Origin: a virus
IMG/VR virus record: IMGVR_UViG_3300042465_002807
Location: 1 to 60,708 of that record
DNA length: 60,708 nucleotides
Direction: 5' to 3' (one strand)
A program made the translations under genes and the position numbers. The notes below the pieces were generated by a model that was not told where the DNA came from, ran no database searches, and was given only the letters and a program-made list of their open reading frames with translations. Below are positions 19,216 to 35,345 of the stretch, piece by piece; the first letter of the stretch is position 1; each line of letters begins with the position of its first letter.

Positions 19216-19244
19216 TTGACATTTCCTTGCGAATCGAGTAGTAT
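19216..19244 (+). promoter_or_regulatory. Sigma70-type promoter with GANTC in spacer (HAD gene)
   Basis: TTGACA (19216-19221), 17-base spacer holding CGAATCG (19230-19236), -10 TAGTAT (19239-19244). The next gene's ATG is at 19251, about where transcription should start, and no ribosome binding site is visible, so the mRNA may be leaderless. Confidence 0.72.
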
Positions 19245-19250
19245 ATAAAC

Positions 19251-19856
19251 ATGATCAGTTTTAAAGAGTTTCTAAACGAGTCGCAAGATGGTGCCGGATT
19301 AACAATCTGGGACATTGATGAAACTCTATTCCGTACCAAAGCCCGTGTCCATATCGTCAAAGGCGGTAAGATAATCAAGACATTGGGTAACAAGCAATAC
19401 AATACATATATTCTACAGCCGGGTGAGTCCTTCGACTTTAGCGAGTTTAGGGACGCCCGGCATTTTCGTGACACCAGCGAACCCATCGCCAAAGCGATTC
19501 GCAAATTGATTGCGATGCATAAGAATATCAAAGCCCGTGGCAGTAAGATGGTTGTCATCACAGCCCGTTCTGACTTCGATGACCGAGATATTTTCCTAGA
19601 TACTTTCCGTCAGCATGGCATTGACATTGATGACATTCATGTCCATCGTGCTGGCAATCTTGGTGCCATGCCCTCTGCGGCTGCTAAGAAAATCTATATT
19701 AAACAATACCTTGACACTGGTAAATACACTCGCGCCCGTCTCTTTGATGACGCGGTGTCCAATCTCCAGATGTTCAAAGACCTTGCACATGAATATCCCA
19801 ATGTAAAGTTTGAGCCGTTCTTGGCTCACGAAGATGGTTCAATGACTCGTTTTTAA
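19251..19856 (+). CDS. HAD-family phosphatase with capsid-targeting-like N-terminal tag
   Basis: 201 aa phosphatase of the HAD superfamily: DIDET (Asp21 nucleophile, Asp23) near the N-terminus, VVITARSD near residue 103 as motif II, and LFDDA near 163 as the acidic motif. The substrate is unknown; nucleotide or polynucleotide 3'-phosphatases share this layout. The first ten residues, MISFKEFLNE, resemble the T4 internal-protein tag MKTYQEFIAE, and LNE followed by Ser fits a gp21-type (L/I)xE cleavage site. This suggests packaging into the head. It has its own sigma70-type promoter and no Shine-Dalgarno sequence. Confidence 0.75.
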   Translation: MISFKEFLNESQDGAGLTIWDIDETLFRTKARVHIVKGGKIIKTLGNKQYNTYILQPGESFDFSEFRDARHFRDTSEPIAKAIRKLIAMHKNIKARGSKMVVITARSDFDDRDIFLDTFRQHGIDIDDIHVHRAGNLGAMPSAAAKKIYIKQYLDTGKYTRARLFDDAVSNLQMFKDLAHEYPNVKFEPFLAHEDGSMTRF

Positions 19857-19857
19857 C

Positions 19858-19885
19858 TTGACATTACCATCGATTCGTGTATACT
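19858..19885 (+). promoter_or_regulatory. Sigma70-type promoter with GANTC in spacer (exported protein gene)
   Basis: TTGACA (19858-19863), 16-base spacer with CGATTCG (19871-19877), TATACT (19880-19885). Followed by AAGGAGA (19894-19900). Confidence 0.75.
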
Positions 19886-19906
19886 AATAATATAAGGAGA
19901 ATGATT

Positions 19907-20269
19907 ATGATTAAGTCTATTGTTTCTAGTATTGTTGCTATCAGTGTTCTTGCTACTCCTGTAGTTGCAGAAGCCAAGGGTCGCGGTGAACACCGCAGCG
20001 AACGCCACGAGCGCAAGCGCGGCAATCATATTAATACCGGCGAAGCTATTGCTATCGGTCTCGGTGCCTTTATTCTCGGTGCTGCTATTAAAAACAACAA
20101 TGGCCGCGATGAGGAAGTTGAGCGTGAAGTTTATGACCGCGAGTATGAATATCACTATCGTAACCGTGATGCATATTATCGCCGGGATCGCAACTGCCGC
20201 ACCACAGAAGTTACGGAATATGACTACTACGGCAATCGATATATTCGCCGTGAGCGCCGTTGTTTCTAA
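19907..20269 (+). CDS. Small exported glycine-zipper-like protein
   Basis: 120 aa from ATG 19907, chosen because AAGGAGA ends 6 bases upstream; an ATG at 19901 would be too close. Residues 1-23 form a signal peptide with an AEA cleavage site before Lys24. Then come a basic stretch (ERHERKRG), a glycine-zipper-like hydrophobic segment (AIAIGLGAFILGAAI), and a Tyr/Arg-rich tail with two Cys. Short exported proteins with this layout are common in alphaproteobacteria, so it may be host-derived. It could act in the periplasm or inner membrane, for example in exclusion of other phages; this is speculation. A strong early-type promoter drives it alone. Confidence 0.7.
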   Translation: MIKSIVSSIVAISVLATPVVAEAKGRGEHRSERHERKRGNHINTGEAIAIGLGAFILGAAIKNNNGRDEEVEREVYDREYEYHYRNRDAYYRRDRNCRTTEVTEYDYYGNRYIRRERRCF

Positions 20270-20340
20270 ACGAATCACTTGACATTTGGTCGCGAATCGA
20301 CTATAGTAAATAATGTGATTGATTGATTGATGAGGTTTTG
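20270..20340 (+). repeat. Type A promoter-leader cassette, copy 1
   Basis: About 45 bases around the VWA promoter (CTTGACATTTGGTCGCGAAT through TAATGTGATTGAT) recur almost unchanged at 23095-23145 upstream of the MoxR-type ATPase. This indicates a recent duplication or strong selection on a shared control site. Confidence 0.85.
20279..20307 (+). promoter_or_regulatory. Sigma70-type promoter with GANTC in spacer (VWA gene), type A
   Basis: TTGACA (20279-20284), 17-base spacer with CGAATCG (20293-20299), TATAGT (20302-20307). Nearly identical over about 45 bases to the promoter at 23097. Confidence 0.85.
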
Positions 20341-20342
20341 TG

Positions 20343-22583
20343 ATGTCCCAGTTTGCTGAAAAGTCGATTCTCGCCAAGTTGTTGGCGACCGAAAACGTAA
20401 TGGTCGAACACCAGAAGGTGCCGACTGCCTATTTTGACCTGCAAAATCGCACGGTCGTTCTTCCCATCTTTAAAGAAATGTCCGCTGACCTCTATGACCT
20501 CTTGATTGGTCATGAAGTAGGTCACGCTCTCGAAACGCCTGCCGCCGGTTGGCATAGCAGTCTCTCTGAGAAGGGTGCTGGCTTCAAGTCGTTCCTTAAC
20601 ATCATTGAAGATGCCCGCATCGAACGCAAGATGAAGGACCGCTACCCCGGTATCCGTCGCTCGTTTTTCAACGGCTACAAAGAACTGTTCGACCAGAATT
20701 TCTTCGGCGTTGAAGGCATGGACCTCACCAAGTTGAAGTTCATTGACCGCATCAACCTTCACGCTAAGGTTGGTGCTTTCCTCAACATCAAGTTCTCTGC
20801 CGAAGAGCAGGCTTACGTTGACCGTCTCGACCAGCTCCAGACTTGGGATGATGTGGTTGCTCTGGCTACCGAACTCTACGAACGTGCCGAGACTTCGACC
20901 GAAGAACTTGACTTCGAAGAATTCATGAACGCCATGAGTAGCATGGCTGACAGCGACGGTGAGTTTGACCCCACCGCAGATTATGTCGAAGTTCCTGGCG
21001 CACCTGCGGCAGAGCAGGCTGAAAAGCAAGACAAGCCTCAGCCGTCTGCTGGCAAGTCCGAAGAAGAAACTTCCGACGACCAGCAAAGTGGTGGTCAGAC
21101 TGACAAGACCGAAGAAAAGTCGGACGAAGAAACCGACCAAGCATCTGACAAAGCCTCAGACGAATCTTCTGACAAAGATGCCGAGAAGACCGAAAGCGAT
21201 ATCGAACCATCTTCGTTCACTGACCAGAACTTCCGTGACAACGAGGACAGTCTTCTGGACGCCAGCGCCCGTGAGACTTTCTACTCCAAGTTGCCAGTTC
21301 TGAACCCTGCTGATTATGTTGTCGGTATCAAGACTGTTGAACAGATGCTTAAATTCACCGTTGGTGGCCGAGCAAAGATGAACGGCAAGACTGTCGAACA
21401 AGTCAAGATGGACCTCTACAAGGACTTTCTGGCTACGAACGGTAAGTACCTGTCTGCTATGGCTCAGGACTTCGAGCGTAAGAAGACCGCCCAGTCGCTT
21501 ATGCGCGCCCAGACTTCTAAGACTGGTCGTATCAATATGGACAAGGTATGGGCTTACAAGATTACGGAAGACCTGTTCCTTCAGAACACGGTAGTTCCTA
21601 ATGGTAAGAACCACGGCATGATTCTGTATCTTGATATGTCGGGCAGCATGTCGCCCAACATGGCTGGTACCATGGAGCAGTTGGTTCTGCTTGCTTCGTT
21701 CTGCCAAAAGGTTCGCATCCCGTTTGAAGTTTATGGCTTCATCACCAACTCATATGCGCCTGATGACTATAGTCGGTCAATTCGTAGCCGTAACGATTAC
21801 ACCGACAAAAAGAACCTCGTGATTAACGACCCTAACTTCCGTATGCTCCAGCTTGTTGCTACTGGTGTTTCTGGCGCTAAGTTCAAGACCCAGATGGCAA
21901 ATCTTCTAGCACTCGGTAAGTCTTATGACCGTCACTATGTTGACCTCTATCTTGACCATTCAGCCCAGACCGCGTTCGGTCTTGGTAGCACTCCTCTTGA
22001 GGAAGCTATCATCATCGGCCGCTACATTGCCGAAGAATTCAAGACCCGTAATCGGATTGAGGTTCTCTCGTCGGTGTTTCTGACAGACGGTCAGGGTGAT
22101 GCCAACTTTGGTGTTGCTGGTGGTCGCGACGGTGATAGCTTTCGTAAGAACCTTGCGATTGTTGACACAAAGACTCGTCGCACCTTTAAGGGTGAATATG
22201 ATGGTGGTAGCTATCGTTCTACGGCTTTCTGCCACGCTTTGCTCGACCTTTACAAGACCACTACTGGTTCGCGCCTGATTAACTTCTATCTAATGAACCC
22301 CTATGACCTCAAGTATATCATTGCTCGTTCTGGTCTTGATGGTGTGGTACAGGACGCTGTCCGTAAGTCATTCAAGAAAGAGGGTGCTGCCCTCCTCAAG
22401 AATGCGAACGGCTTTGATGACCAGTTCCTTATCAAGTCTGGTCGCAGCCTCCAGGTTCAGGAAGATACTCTTACTGTAGACTCGAACGATAAGAAGGAAC
22501 TTATGAAAGCCTTCAAATCGTTCCAGGACAAGAAAGCAATGGGTCGTGTAATCCTTTCTAAGATGGTCGAAGCGGTAGCCTAA
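20343..22583 (+). CDS. HExxH metallopeptidase-like / VWA domain protein (CobT-like)
   Basis: 746 aa from ATG 20343 (GAGG 7 bases upstream; GTG 20340 rejected). Residues 57-61 are HEVGH, a zinc-binding HExxH motif with a following conserved EDARIERKM helix near residue 100. A long acidic, Ser/Gln-rich linker covers about residues 215-300. The C-terminal half is a VWA domain with MIDAS motif DMSGS (Asp431) and a later TDGQGD. This architecture matches CobT-like VWA proteins that partner MoxR/CobS-type AAA+ ATPases; such an ATPase is encoded at 23173 under a near-identical promoter. Cobalt chelation is unlikely in a phage; a chaperone-protease machine is more plausible. Confidence 0.85.
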   Translation: MSQFAEKSILAKLLATENVMVEHQKVPTAYFDLQNRTVVLPIFKEMSADLYDLLIGHEVGHALETPAAGWHSSLSEKGAGFKSFLNIIEDARIERKMKDRYPGIRRSFFNGYKELFDQNFFGVEGMDLTKLKFIDRINLHAKVGAFLNIKFSAEEQAYVDRLDQLQTWDDVVALATELYERAETSTEELDFEEFMNAMSSMADSDGEFDPTADYVEVPGAPAAEQAEKQDKPQPSAGKSEEETSDDQQSGGQTDKTEEKSDEETDQASDKASDESSDKDAEKTESDIEPSSFTDQNFRDNEDSLLDASARETFYSKLPVLNPADYVVGIKTVEQMLKFTVGGRAKMNGKTVEQVKMDLYKDFLATNGKYLSAMAQDFERKKTAQSLMRAQTSKTGRINMDKVWAYKITEDLFLQNTVVPNGKNHGMILYLDMSGSMSPNMAGTMEQLVLLASFCQKVRIPFEVYGFITNSYAPDDYSRSIRSRNDYTDKKNLVINDPNFRMLQLVATGVSGAKFKTQMANLLALGKSYDRHYVDLYLDHSAQTAFGLGSTPLEEAIIIGRYIAEEFKTRNRIEVLSSVFLTDGQGDANFGVAGGRDGDSFRKNLAIVDTKTRRTFKGEYDGGSYRSTAFCHALLDLYKTTTGSRLINFYLMNPYDLKYIIARSGLDGVVQDAVRKSFKKEGAALLKNANGFDDQFLIKSGRSLQVQEDTLTVDSNDKKELMKAFKSFQDKKAMGRVILSKMVEAVA

Positions 22584-22655
22584 AAATTACCGCTTGACTT
22601 CTCCATCGAATCTGCTATTGTAAAATAGTAGACAGAAGAGAGAAAGTGATTCGTT
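22581..22655 (+). repeat. Type B promoter-leader cassette, copy 1
   Basis: Block starting TAAAAATTACCGCTTGAC, including AAAATAGTAGACAGAAGAGA and ending GTGATTCG before the HNH ATG. Aligns with 35270-35343 with few changes and one or two single-base gaps. Confidence 0.82.
22594..22621 (+). promoter_or_regulatory. Sigma70-type promoter with GANTC in spacer (HNH gene), type B
   Basis: TTGACT (22594-22599), 16-base spacer with GAATC (22608-22612), TATTGT (22616-22621). The leader contains TGATTCG (22647-22653). The block from 22581 to 22653 is closely repeated at 35270-35343. Confidence 0.75.
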
Positions 22656-23093
22656 ATGAACCTTGGTGTCCAGATGAAGCAGAAATTTTTCGCCGAAGGA
22701 AATGTTTTACCGAAATGTGTTAATCCTGGTTGTGTCCGTTTCGTCCAGGTGCGAGATTGGAAAAACTGGTCTATTAAGTCCGAGTGTGGTAGCTGCTACA
22801 AAGCCCGTGTAACTGGCTTTCGTGGGCCTGCTATGAATGGTATAGAAATTCATAAAAAAGAATATTGTGAAAATGCTGATGGTCGATTGGGCTGGGAATG
22901 TCCCGTGCCAGTTCGTTCTTGGAAAGAACTTGGTATGTTAAATGCTCTTGACCTCGAGCATCTGGACGGCGACCATTTTAATAATGCTCCAGAGAATGTC
23001 GATACAATCTGCAAACTCTGTCATGGTAAGAAGTCCACTATCAATAATGATTTTTCAAATACCAAAGAATCTGCACGGCGAATCGTGCATTAA
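22656..23093 (+). CDS. HNH endonuclease (probable free-standing homing endonuclease)
   Basis: 145 aa. N-terminal Cys pairs (CVNPGC, CGSC) form a likely zinc-binding region. The HNH core is visible at the C-terminus: LEHLDGDHFNN, then ENVDTICKLCHGKK with the final zinc Cys pair. Such genes move as free-standing mobile elements in T-even-type phages. It is inserted between the VWA protein and its presumed MoxR-type partner and carries its own promoter cassette. Confidence 0.87.
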   Translation: MNLGVQMKQKFFAEGNVLPKCVNPGCVRFVQVRDWKNWSIKSECGSCYKARVTGFRGPAMNGIEIHKKEYCENADGRLGWECPVPVRSWKELGMLNALDLEHLDGDHFNNAPENVDTICKLCHGKKSTINNDFSNTKESARRIVH

Positions 23094-23094
23094 T

Positions 23095-23145
23095 GCTTGA
23101 CATTTGGTCGCGAATCGACTATAGTGAATAATGTGATTGATGATG
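23095..23145 (+). repeat. Type A promoter-leader cassette, copy 2
   Basis: Second copy of the 20279-type cassette; differs at one position in the TATAGT-AATAA junction (GAATAA versus AAATAA) and in leader length. Confidence 0.85.
23097..23125 (+). promoter_or_regulatory. Sigma70-type promoter with GANTC in spacer (MoxR/CobS gene), type A
   Basis: TTGACA (23097-23102), 17-base spacer with CGAATCG (23111-23117), TATAGT (23120-23125). Matches the 20279 promoter almost base for base, through to the TAATGTGATTGAT leader. Confidence 0.85.
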
Positions 23146-23172
23146 TTTGTTTATGAAAAAGGTGATTTTATT

Positions 23173-24348
23173 ATGACTAATACCCGTGAAGCAATGCTTG
23201 CTGCCCTCCGTGCCTCTGATACAAATGGTGGCATTTTCCGCAAGCGTGAAGTTATTGCCGTGTCGAATGCTCTTGGACTCAAGAGCCGCATTGCAGACAA
23301 GATTATGGAAGAGGGTCTGAAGGTCTCTCGCGGCGTTTACGATTTGTCGGCTGCAATGGCTGGCGTGACTGCCATCCCCGCTCCAGTGATGCCCCAACCT
23401 GTTGCTGAAATTGTGTCGAAGCCTGTTGCCAAGACCTTGATGCAACCTAAGCTGGAAGTCACAATTGACAATCTGGTGCCCCGTGTCGATACGACCTACG
23501 TGCCGTTCGGTTTCTACAAGGACCTTGTCAAGGTTCTCAAAGCAGAGGCCTTCTACCCCACGTTCATCTCTGGTCTGTCTGGTAACGGTAAGACCACGAT
23601 GGTTGAACAGGCTTGCGCTAAGTTGAAGCGCGAGGTTATGCGTGTCAATATCTCGGTTGAGACCGACGAGGATGACCTGATTGGTGGCAACACCCTTGTC
23701 GATGGCAACGTGGTGTACCGCGAAGGTCCTGTTCTCACCGCCATGAAGCGTGGTGCAATCCTTATTCTTGATGAAATCGACCGTGGTTCGAACAAGATGA
23801 TGTGTATGCAAGCCATTCTCGAAGGCAAGCCTTACTTCAATAAGAAGACTGGTGAGACGGTCTACCCTGCAAAGGGCTTCAACGTGATTGCCACTGCTAA
23901 CACCAAGGGTCGTGGTTCCGACGATGGCAAGTTCATCTCGGCCCAGATTCTTGATGACGCCTTCCTTGAGCGTTTCGCCATCACCGTTGAGCAAGAATAC
24001 CCATCTGCTAAGGTTGAAAAGCAGATTGTCATGAACAAGATGGAAAAGGCTGGTGCGATTGATGAAGAATTCGCCGATAACCTTGTCACTTGGGCTGAAA
24101 TCATCCGTAAGACTTTTTACGATGGTGGCATTGACGACCTGATTTCGACCCGCCGTCTTGAACACATTGTCAACGCCTTTGCCATGTTCAAGTCGCGTAA
24201 CAAGGCTGTAGAACTTTGCGTCAATCGCTTTGATGCTGATACCAAGTCCGCATTCCTTGACCTCTACGGTAAGGTTGATGCTAAGGTTGATATCGCACCT
24301 ACCGAAGATGCAAATGATGACAAGTTTTTTGATGAAACCCCTTTCTAA
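23173..24348 (+). CDS. MoxR/CobS-type AAA+ ATPase
   Basis: 391 aa from ATG 23173 (AAGGTGA upstream). An in-frame ATG at 23137 would sit about 5 bases from the predicted transcription start, so I chose the inner one. Walker A GLSGNGKT at residues 134-141, Walker B ILILDEIDRGS near 197, sensor/arginine region near 260-300. T4-like cyanophages carry relatives annotated cobS. Its likely partner is the VWA protein at 20343, as MoxR ATPases act with VWA proteins to remodel or mature client complexes. It heads the replisome operon that continues through regA. Confidence 0.9.
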   Translation: MTNTREAMLAALRASDTNGGIFRKREVIAVSNALGLKSRIADKIMEEGLKVSRGVYDLSAAMAGVTAIPAPVMPQPVAEIVSKPVAKTLMQPKLEVTIDNLVPRVDTTYVPFGFYKDLVKVLKAEAFYPTFISGLSGNGKTTMVEQACAKLKREVMRVNISVETDEDDLIGGNTLVDGNVVYREGPVLTAMKRGAILILDEIDRGSNKMMCMQAILEGKPYFNKKTGETVYPAKGFNVIATANTKGRGSDDGKFISAQILDDAFLERFAITVEQEYPSAKVEKQIVMNKMEKAGAIDEEFADNLVTWAEIIRKTFYDGGIDDLISTRRLEHIVNAFAMFKSRNKAVELCVNRFDADTKSAFLDLYGKVDAKVDIAPTEDANDDKFFDETPF

Positions 24349-24882: not shown

Positions 24883-25542
24883 ATGAAGATTTCCAATGAA
24901 ACACTTTCACTTCTAAAGAACTACGCTGGTATCAATACCAATATTCTGTTTCGGCAGGGTAATGTAATTGGTACCGTTAGTCCTGGGAAGAACATCTTTT
25001 CACGCGCCACGGTTACTGAAACCTTCCCGCGTGAATTTGCCATCTACGACCTGAATACTCTTCTGGCTCTTCTCACTTTGATGGAAGATCAGGATGTAGA
25101 TTTTGGCGAGAGTAGCATCAAGGTTAGCAAGGACGGTTCGAAGTTCGAATACTTCTATTCTGATCCCGGCACCGTGACCGCTGCTCCCGACAAGAACCTT
25201 GAGATTGAACCTGTGTGGTCGTTCGACCTTTCGGCGGACGCAATCAGTATGCTTCTCCGCGCCGCATCAATCACCTCGGCACCAATCATCAGCATTGTAT
25301 CGGATGGCGCCCAGGTTCAACTCAAGGTTGGCGACCCCACCAATTCTTCGGCAAACTCTTACACTAAGACTATCAGCACCGATGCTGCTCCCGTGTTTGA
25401 TTGCCGAGTGAAGACCGAGAACCTCAAAGTCCTGTCTGATAACTACACTGTCACGCTTGGTAAGAAGCGCGCCATGGAGTTTAAGAGCAAGGGTCGTGAA
25501 CTCGTTTATTACATTGCAATGGACCCTGCGTCCTCTATCTAA
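24883..25542 (+). CDS. 45: Sliding clamp gp45
   Basis: Processivity clamp for polymerase gp43 and mobile activator of late transcription through gp55. 219 aa (T4 gp45 228 aa). The protein has the clamp layout with FPREFAIYDLNTLLALL near residue 50, a central linker, and a C-terminal LSDNYTVTLGKKRAMEFKS near residue 185. It is followed by the clamp loader genes 44 and 62, as in T4, but with two extra genes in between. Confidence 0.93.
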   Translation: MKISNETLSLLKNYAGINTNILFRQGNVIGTVSPGKNIFSRATVTETFPREFAIYDLNTLLALLTLMEDQDVDFGESSIKVSKDGSKFEYFYSDPGTVTAAPDKNLEIEPVWSFDLSADAISMLLRAASITSAPIISIVSDGAQVQLKVGDPTNSSANSYTKTISTDAAPVFDCRVKTENLKVLSDNYTVTLGKKRAMEFKSKGRELVYYIAMDPASSI

Positions 25543-34827: not shown

Positions 34828-34905
34828 GCGCCGTTAGCTCATCTGGATCAGAGCGCGAGACTTCTAATCTTGAGGCAGCAGGTTCGAGTCCTGCACGGCG
34901 CACCA
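34828..34905 (+). tRNA. tRNA-Arg (anticodon TCT)
   Basis: Complete cloverleaf: acceptor GCGCCGT pairs with ACGGCGC; D-arm TAGCTCATCTGGATCAGAGC; anticodon stem CGAGA/TCTTG with loop CTTCTAA, giving anticodon TCT (reads AGA/AGG); T-arm GCAGGTTCGAGTCCTGC; discriminator A and an encoded CCA (34903-34905). AGA is a fairly frequent codon in the late and accessory genes here and often rare in GC-rich alphaproteobacteria, so it may supplement the host. Confidence 0.96.
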
Positions 34906-35272: not shown

Positions 35273-35345
35273 AAATACCGCTTGACATTTCCTCAGAATA
35301 TGCTACTATAAAATAGTAGACAGAAAAGAGAAAATGTGATTCGAA
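35270..35345 (+). repeat. Type B promoter-leader cassette, copy 2
   Basis: Second copy (TAAAAATACCGCTTGACA, then AAAATAGTAGACAGAAAAGA and GTGATTCG). The ATG at the HNH-equivalent position leads only to ATG-TTA-TAA, and a late promoter begins inside that short frame, so the original downstream gene seems to have been replaced. Confidence 0.8.
35282..35310 (+). promoter_or_regulatory. Sigma70-type promoter, type B cassette copy 2
   Basis: TTGACA (35282-35287), 16-base spacer, TACTAT (35304-35309). This copy has GAATA instead of GAATC in the spacer but keeps TGATTCG in the leader (35337-35343), as in the HNH cassette. Confidence 0.7.

What the first reader, a model, noticed from the sequence alone, without database searches (positions are those of the whole stretch)
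19216..23125. CcrM-site (GANTC) heptamer built into the spacer of early phage promoters
Promoters at 19216, 20279 and 23097 carry CGAATCG, and 19858 carries its reverse complement CGATTCG, always between -35 and -10. The 22594 promoter has GAATC there. The two type B leaders also contain TGATTCG. As I recall, Caulobacter GcrA, a sigma70 cofactor, activates promoters with methylated GANTC of type YGAKTCG between -10 and -35; the phage sites match that form. This suggests that the VWA/MoxR pair, the replisome operon and the HAD gene are tuned to host CcrM/GcrA cell-cycle control. The other sigma70 promoters (13250, 28191, 29604, 34791, 48904, 56305) lack the site in the spacer.
Basis: partly seen in the sequence, partly recalled or inferred. 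Interest (0 to 1): 0.85.

Follow-up and report, generated by a model that had tools for sequence, protein, structure and literature searches.

The report
Phage early promoters with CcrM-GcrA sites
A T4-like virus of water bacteria carries, in many of its early gene switches, the short DNA word GANTC at one fixed place just ahead of the start signal, which suggests that it borrows a methylation-reading helper protein (GcrA) of its probable alphaproteobacterial host; the pattern is real, the helper is inferred and untested.

Summary
All five promoters carry GANTC in the spacer, always ending exactly 3 bp before the -10 hexamer, with 16- or 17-bp spacers. Related phage contigs carry 5-15 more such promoters each. 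In an unselected test of 16 gapped palindromes at every register, GANTC at register 3 ranked first in the window, three relatives and two more distant phage records. Five isolated phages used as controls had 1 of 182. In the HAD and MoxR promoters CGAATCG does not vary among relatives while the rest of the spacer does. Many leaders carry a second site, TGATTCG or its reverse complement, just before the start codon.

The host is unknown. However, the phage tRNA-Arg(TCT) is closest to those of GcrA+/CcrM-type+ alphaproteobacteria (up to 92%), and GANTC is depleted as in several alphaproteobacterial phages. Best explanation: host GcrA, bound to sigma70 RNA polymerase, reads CcrM-methylated GANTC and boosts phage early promoters (0.6). 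Cell-cycle tuning is not shown. No such register was found in alphaproteobacterial genomes by simple patterns, and no isolated phage examined with a known host has this promoter class. GcrA-type sites in phage promoters were not found described in the held literature.

The parts
19216..19244 (+). Promoter of the HAD/polynucleotide-kinase-like gene (19251-19856): -35 TTGACA 19216-19221, CGAATCG 19230-19236, -10 TAGTAT 19239-19244
   Evidence: CGAATCG invariant among 28 relatives while 5 upstream spacer columns vary
19858..19885 (+). Promoter of a small secreted-protein-like gene: -35 19858-19863, CGATTCG 19871-19877, -10 TATACT 19880-19885
   Evidence: 2 of 29 relatives have CGTTTCG, a loss of GANTC
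20279..20307 (+). Promoter of the VWA/peptidase-family gene (20340-22583): -35 20279-20284, CGAATCG 20293-20299, -10 TATAGT 20302-20307
   Evidence: identical in 34 relatives
22594..22621 (+). Type B promoter of the HNH-like ORF: -35 TTGACT 22594-22599, CGAATCT 22607-22613 overlapping TGC (extended -10), -10 TATTGT 22616-22621
   Evidence: type B family with 16-bp spacer in relatives
22647..22653 (+). TGATTCG in the type B leader, just before the start codon of the HNH-like ORF
   Evidence: 28 of 59 distinct leaders in the family carry a GANTC
23097..23125 (+). Promoter of MoxR-like AAA ATPase / DUF3310 / sliding clamp genes: -35 23097-23102, CGAATCG 23111-23117, -10 TATAGT 23120-23125
   Evidence: CGAATCG invariant among relatives while spacer bases on both sides vary
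35282..35309 (+). Type B sister promoter without GANTC (GAATA in its place); the orthologous promoter in G004 has AGAATCTGC
35337..35343 (+). TGATTCG in the second type B leader
20340..22583 (+). VWA/peptidase-family protein (PHROG 459), driven by promoter 20279
22656..23093 (+). HNH endonuclease-like ORF (weak PHROG matches) with its own type B promoter, between VWA and MoxR genes; no such interval in G001/G004
23137..24348 (+). MoxR/CbbQ-like AAA ATPase (PHROG 249), driven by promoter 23097
24883..25542 (+). gp45-like sliding clamp, downstream of the MoxR gene
34828..34905 (+). tRNA-Arg(TCT) used for host inference; best match 92% in an alphaproteobacterium with GcrA and a CcrM-type methylase

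Best explanation
These are early sigma70 promoters of a lytic T4-like phage of a GcrA/CcrM-bearing alphaproteobacterium. They keep a GANTC site in one helical register, 3 bp upstream of the -10, so that host GcrA, tethered to sigma region 2 of RNA polymerase, can read the CcrM-methylated site and speed recruitment and open-complex formation. Shown here: the site, its register, its excess over chance, its conservation, and its presence in separate T4-like lineages. Not shown: any dependence on the cell cycle.
For: Register: GANTC by distance to -10 is {3:5} in the window, {3:14, 9:2} in G001, {3:15} in G004, {3:11, 8:1} in G271, {3:8} in G284, {3:6, 7:1} in G269. Five isolated phages (Melnitz, HTVC008M, S-PM2, phiN3, C48C1) have 1 at register 3 among 182 promoter-like places. 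GANTC at register 3 ranks first of 16 palindromes at all registers in the window, G001, G004, G271, G269 and G023. IMG/VR: at least 120 stretches at register 3 (capped, many with 2-3 sites), against 27 single hits with the site shifted 3 bp and 11 with the site reversed. Footprinting in relatives. Leaders with TGATTCG or CGAATCA; TGATTCG is named as the extended GcrA activation motif in PMC7987155. GcrA binds sigma2 and stimulates open complexes at methylated promoters (PMC7403470). Host: the best tRNA-Arg match is 92% in an alphaproteobacterium, and all eight best-matching genomes carry GcrA and a RAMA-domain methylase. GANTC O/E 0.73-0.80 in the window family, against 0.61-0.73 in Sinorhizobium phages, 0.17 in a Pelagibacter phage and 0.89-1.07 in non-alpha phages. 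GANTC 1.6-3.1 times denser between genes than in them, like CcrM hosts (PMC3973325). gp41 of G269 groups with Sinorhizobium phages, apart from the window family.
Against: The host is not known; core genes gp41 and gp23 are nearest a Methylophilales phage. Isolated phages of Caulobacter, Sinorhizobium, Rhizobium and Pelagibacter examined lack the architecture (one hit in CcrColossus, none in the others). No GcrA gene in 26 related or pattern-matched records. Type B sites (CGAATCT) and marine AGAATCA sites do not fit YGAKTCG. The sense strand is nearly always GAATC, more asymmetric than a palindromic site needs. In 240 alphaproteobacterial genomes TTGAC/TANNNT promoters show no excess of GANTC at register 3 over register 6 (43 v 44), and 1.2 Mb of the best tRNA-matching genome shows none. 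About half of the leader-bearing predicted promoters of the family lack the site.
Confidence: 0.6

Rival explanations
1. The element is read by another sequence-specific factor, phage- or host-encoded, that works in register with RNA polymerase (an activator of early or middle promoters), and its overlap with the CcrM site is coincidental or secondary.
For: Sense-strand GAATC is strongly preferred and flanks differ between lineages (C/A/G before, G/A/T after); type B sites do not fit YGAKTCG; no register signal in the alphaproteobacterial genomes scanned.
Against: 19858 keeps the site in the opposite orientation (CGATTCG), and leaders alternate TGATTCG and its reverse complement, as expected for a GANTC-centred signal. 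No candidate factor gene was identified, though the search for one was limited.
Confidence: 0.2
2. An intrinsic promoter feature: bases upstream of the -10 that sigma70 RNA polymerase itself favours, without any accessory factor or methylation.
For: Type B has GAATC directly followed by TGC, an extended -10. One Clostridia genome also shows 12 GANTC-register-3 promoters. The unselected IMG/VR sample at register 3 is enriched in GAATC and TGn.
Against: Related phages with similar -35/-10 boxes (Melnitz, S-PM2, HTVC008M, C48C1, phiN3) have it at background level (1 of 182). In type A no TGn follows, yet CGAATCG is invariant while neighbours change.
Confidence: 0.12
3. Operator of a repressor that shuts early promoters off.
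For: CGAWTCG is palindromic. In the unrelated 197-kb phage G022 a longer palindrome (CTCGAWTCGAG) sits on the -10 or -35 of many promoters, and XRE-gene promoters (L006, L085) have ACGATTCGT-type operators.
Against: In the window family the symmetry does not extend beyond 7 bp, type B breaks it, and the register hardly changes, unlike G022, where registers 3, 4, 5 and 11 occur.
Confidence: 0.08

Closest known systems
GcrA/CcrM-dependent sigma70 promoters of Caulobacter crescentus and Brevundimonas subvibrioides (PMC3667746, PMC7987155)
   Same: Methylatable GANTC at or between -10 and -35; C before GANTC mildly preferred (Brevundimonas); TGATTCG/YGAKTCG form in 4 of 5 window spacers and in most leader sites.
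   Different: Here in a lytic T4-like phage, at one fixed register, in many promoters of one genome, with consensus TTGACA/TATANT boxes; GcrA dependence and methylation untested.
CtrA-controlled promoters in phages of Alphaproteobacteria (PMC9437464)
   Same: Phage genes put under a host cell-cycle regulator through its binding sites.
   Different: Different regulator; that study found no positional asymmetry of GcrA sites in the phages it examined; CtrA-like TTAA-N7-TTAA sites are not enriched here.
phiCbK-group phages that encode a GcrA homologue (PMC3556154, cited in PMC7987155)
   Same: Phage use of the GcrA pathway.
   Different: Those phages carry the regulator gene; the window and relatives carry sites but no GcrA gene.

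Membership tests
GcrA-activated methylated sigma70 promoter | GANTC between -35 and -10 | tested here: met
   5 of 5 reported promoters, always 3 bp from -10
GcrA-activated methylated sigma70 promoter | extended motif YGAKTCG (either strand) | tested here: inconclusive
   19216, 19858, 20279, 23097 fit; 22594 and type B promoters (CGAATCT) do not. Brevundimonas GcrA promoters do not require it (PMC7987155)
GcrA-activated methylated sigma70 promoter | host encodes GcrA and CcrM | tested here: inconclusive
   Host unknown; the eight best tRNA-matching genomes all have PF07750 and a RAMA methylase
GcrA-activated methylated sigma70 promoter | site is m6A-methylated | not testable with these tools
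   Needs long-read methylation calls
GcrA-activated methylated sigma70 promoter | transcription falls without GcrA or CcrM | not testable with these tools
   Needs a reporter assay
Register shared with host promoters (not a defining feature) | GANTC at register 3 in host TTGAC/TANNNT promoters | tested here: not met
   43 at register 3 v 44 at register 6 in 240 genomes; no signal in 1.2 Mb of G174. A simple pattern test only
Phage-encoded GcrA/CcrM system | gcrA gene in the phage | tested here: not met
   No PF07750 match in 26 records, many of them fragments

The most novel reading that the evidence does not exclude
A replication-coupled epigenetic switch: virion DNA methylated at GANTC in the previous host turns GcrA-dependent early promoters on at entry; phage DNA replication outruns host CcrM, so new copies are hemi- or unmethylated and the early promoters shut off, timing the early-to-late change without a phage-encoded early repressor.
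Probability: 0.15. Interest if true: 0.85.

Novelty: new variant of a known kind. Interest (0 to 1): 0.62.

Why it matters
If GcrA drives these promoters, a lytic phage lineage common in public aquatic metagenome contigs uses a host epigenetic sigma70 cofactor for its early genes. That would link phage timing to DNA methylation and make methylation-dependent phage transcription testable with simple reporters. The register rule (GANTC 3 bp from -10) is also a ready-made search tool for phages of GcrA/CcrM hosts.

Tried and rejected
Pattern scan of genome contigs: the capped list is mostly Clostridia and other low-GC genomes, as expected for chance hits in promoter-rich genomes; not informative on host. 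Class-wide search for TTGAC/TATANT promoters with the site: 6 of 240 genomes. Phage-encoded GcrA: none. PF01555 methylases in relatives (G004, G019, G022, G023, G024): inspected by eye only; their motifs did not look CcrM-like, specificity untested. CtrA sites: no enrichment. Nucleotide searches for isolates related to other site-bearing lineages gave only weak matches to conserved genes, tRNAs and methylases. G022 first counted as support, then moved to a probable repressor-operator class. Caulobacter phage Cr30 has almost no TTGAC-type promoters in its first 50 kb, so it is a weak negative. The papers by Haakonsen 2015 and Wu 2018 are not held, so the natural register of Caulobacter GcrA promoters could not be checked.

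Full report
What is there. The window is a 60.7-kb fragment of a T4-like phage genome from IMG/VR: terminase, sheath, portal, major head protein, clamp, clamp loader, DNA polymerase, UvsX, late sigma factor. Each has a TTGACA/T -35, a spacer of 16 or 17 bp, a TANNNT -10, and GANTC ending exactly 3 bp before the -10. Two of the five (20279, 23097) are copies of one sequence. The promoters are followed by a HAD/polynucleotide-kinase-like gene, a small secreted-protein-like gene, the VWA gene, an HNH-like ORF and the MoxR-like gene, with DUF3310 and the sliding clamp downstream.

More than chance. GANTC is under-represented in the window (162 against 267 in dinucleotide shuffles). Shuffling the spacers of seven promoters (the five plus 35282 and 48904) gives P = 2e-5 for five with GANTC at any place, and P = 1.8e-4 when the duplicate is dropped; no shuffle of 200,000 reached the observed count at register 3. 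An unselected comparison of 16 gapped palindromes at all registers puts GANTC at register 3 first in the window (4 of 14 distinct spacers), in relatives G001 (13 of 57), G004 (14 of 42) and G271 (10 of 21), and in the more distant records G269 (5 of 16) and G023 (7 of 44), where about 1 in 256 is expected per cell. Records within one family share ancestry and are not independent.

Relatives. The 171-kb relative G001 has 14 such promoters, all on the gene strand, and the 104-kb G004 has 15. They fall into type A (CGAATCGNN, 17-bp spacer) and type B (CGAATCTGC, 16-bp spacer with an extended -10). Isolated phages tested with the same pattern have 0 or 1. In IMG/VR the strict pattern gives at least 120 stretches, often 2-3 sites each; the site moved 3 bp upstream gives 27 single hits and the reversed site 11. 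These totals mix all hosts, and the first is capped. Footprinting: in the HAD and MoxR promoters the upstream spacer half varies among relatives while CGAATCG does not; two relatives have lost GANTC in the 19858 promoter. The gp41 tree places G269 with Sinorhizobium phages and not with the window family, so the trait occurs in at least two T4-like lineages.

Second site. Of 59 distinct leaders of the family 28 carry a GANTC against about 8 expected, most at the same place before the start codon; 20 are TGATTCG and most others CGAATCA-type, its reverse complement. TGATTCG is given in PMC7987155 as the extended GcrA activation motif. Leader homology inflates these counts.

Host. No host is recorded. 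Core genes are nearest the Methylophilales phage Melnitz (65-67%), which would argue against GcrA, although its authors infer a past host change from alphaproteobacterial SAR11 (PMC9004378). UvsX, in contrast, falls with rhizobial phages, C48C1, G023 and G269. The phage tRNA-Arg(TCT) is the best clue: among 299 Pseudomonadota genomes the best match is G174, an alphaproteobacterium, 92% over the full length. The eight best-matching genomes of the class and phylum samples all carry GcrA and a RAMA-domain (CcrM-type) methylase; eight of the nine tested with no GcrA match also lack the methylase. tRNA genes can be exchanged between phages, so this is strong but indirect. GANTC O/E is 0.73-0.80 in the family, 0.61-0.73 in three Sinorhizobium phages and one Rhizobium phage, 0.95 in another Rhizobium phage, 0.85-0.86 in two Caulobacter phages, 0.17 in Pelagibacter phage HTVC008M, 0.89 in Melnitz and 0.97-1.07 in cyanophages and T4. 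Pelagibacter is reported to methylate GANTC (PMC12570018). In the family GANTC is 1.6-3.1 times denser between genes, as reported for CcrM-bearing bacteria (PMC3973325).

Mechanism. GcrA binds sigma region 2 and stimulates open complexes at methylated promoters (PMC7403470); its footprint on ctrA P1 spans -35 to -10 (PMC3667746). A site 3 bp from the -10 in constant register is what a sigma2-tethered reader would need. The probable repressor operators of G022 show, by contrast, a longer palindrome at several registers. This makes GcrA the best candidate, at 0.6. The steps shown here are site, register, conservation and probable host class; methylation, GcrA binding and effect are inferred.

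Limits. Promoters are consensus predictions. The register is absent from alphaproteobacterial genomes by simple patterns (43 against 44 hits at registers 3 and 6) and from 1.2 Mb of G174, possibly because host promoters rarely have consensus boxes, possibly because the idea is wrong. GANTC O/E in G174 is 0.43, as expected with CcrM. Type B flanks do not fit YGAKTCG, the sense strand is almost always GAATC, and about half of the leader-bearing predicted promoters of the family lack the site (46 of 94 with it).

Novelty. The literature found here describes CtrA sites in alphaproteobacterial phages with no GcrA site asymmetry (PMC9437464), GcrA homologues in phiCbK-group phages, and a GcrA-dependent prophage operon in Brevundimonas (PMC7987155). 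In-register GANTC early promoters in lytic phages were not found described, but only open-licence papers could be searched. Cell-cycle tuning is one possible use; plain promoter strengthening, or an off-switch as new phage DNA loses methylation, are others.

Noticed in passing
window 22584-23130: An HNH-like ORF with its own type B promoter and leader lies between the VWA and MoxR genes in the window and G008; in G001 and G004 the two genes are too close for it, which suggests insertion of a promoter-HNH cassette.
   Followed up: partly
G022 (L368-L377; IMGVR_UViG_3300027908_000001): A 197-kb phage with CTCGAWTCGAG-like palindromes on the -10 or -35 of many promoters at several registers: a probable repressor-operator network.
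   Followed up: partly
L006, L010, L051, L075, L085: Promoters, in several cases of XRE-type regulator genes, with ACGATTCGT palindromes overlapping the -10; probable autoregulatory operators, a different class from the window sites.
   Followed up: no
L168 (G023:57946-61578): CGAATCG promoters precede an endonuclease-like ORF and an adjacent PF01555 methylase in a 203-kb phage; the methylase is similar in DNA to one of Prochlorococcus phage P-SSM7.
   Followed up: partly
HTVC008M (L355-L361): Very strong avoidance of GANTC (O/E 0.17) in a Pelagibacter phage, far beyond any other phage compared.
   Followed up: no
G001:120341-120369, G004:44045-44073: A promoter-like TTGACA...AGAATCAGAT... sequence inside an open frame, with near-identical copies in several other viral loci (L436, L464, L493, L499, L514).
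   Followed up: no
window, whole: The T4-type late promoter word TATAAATA occurs 9 times on the gene strand and never on the other.
   Followed up: no
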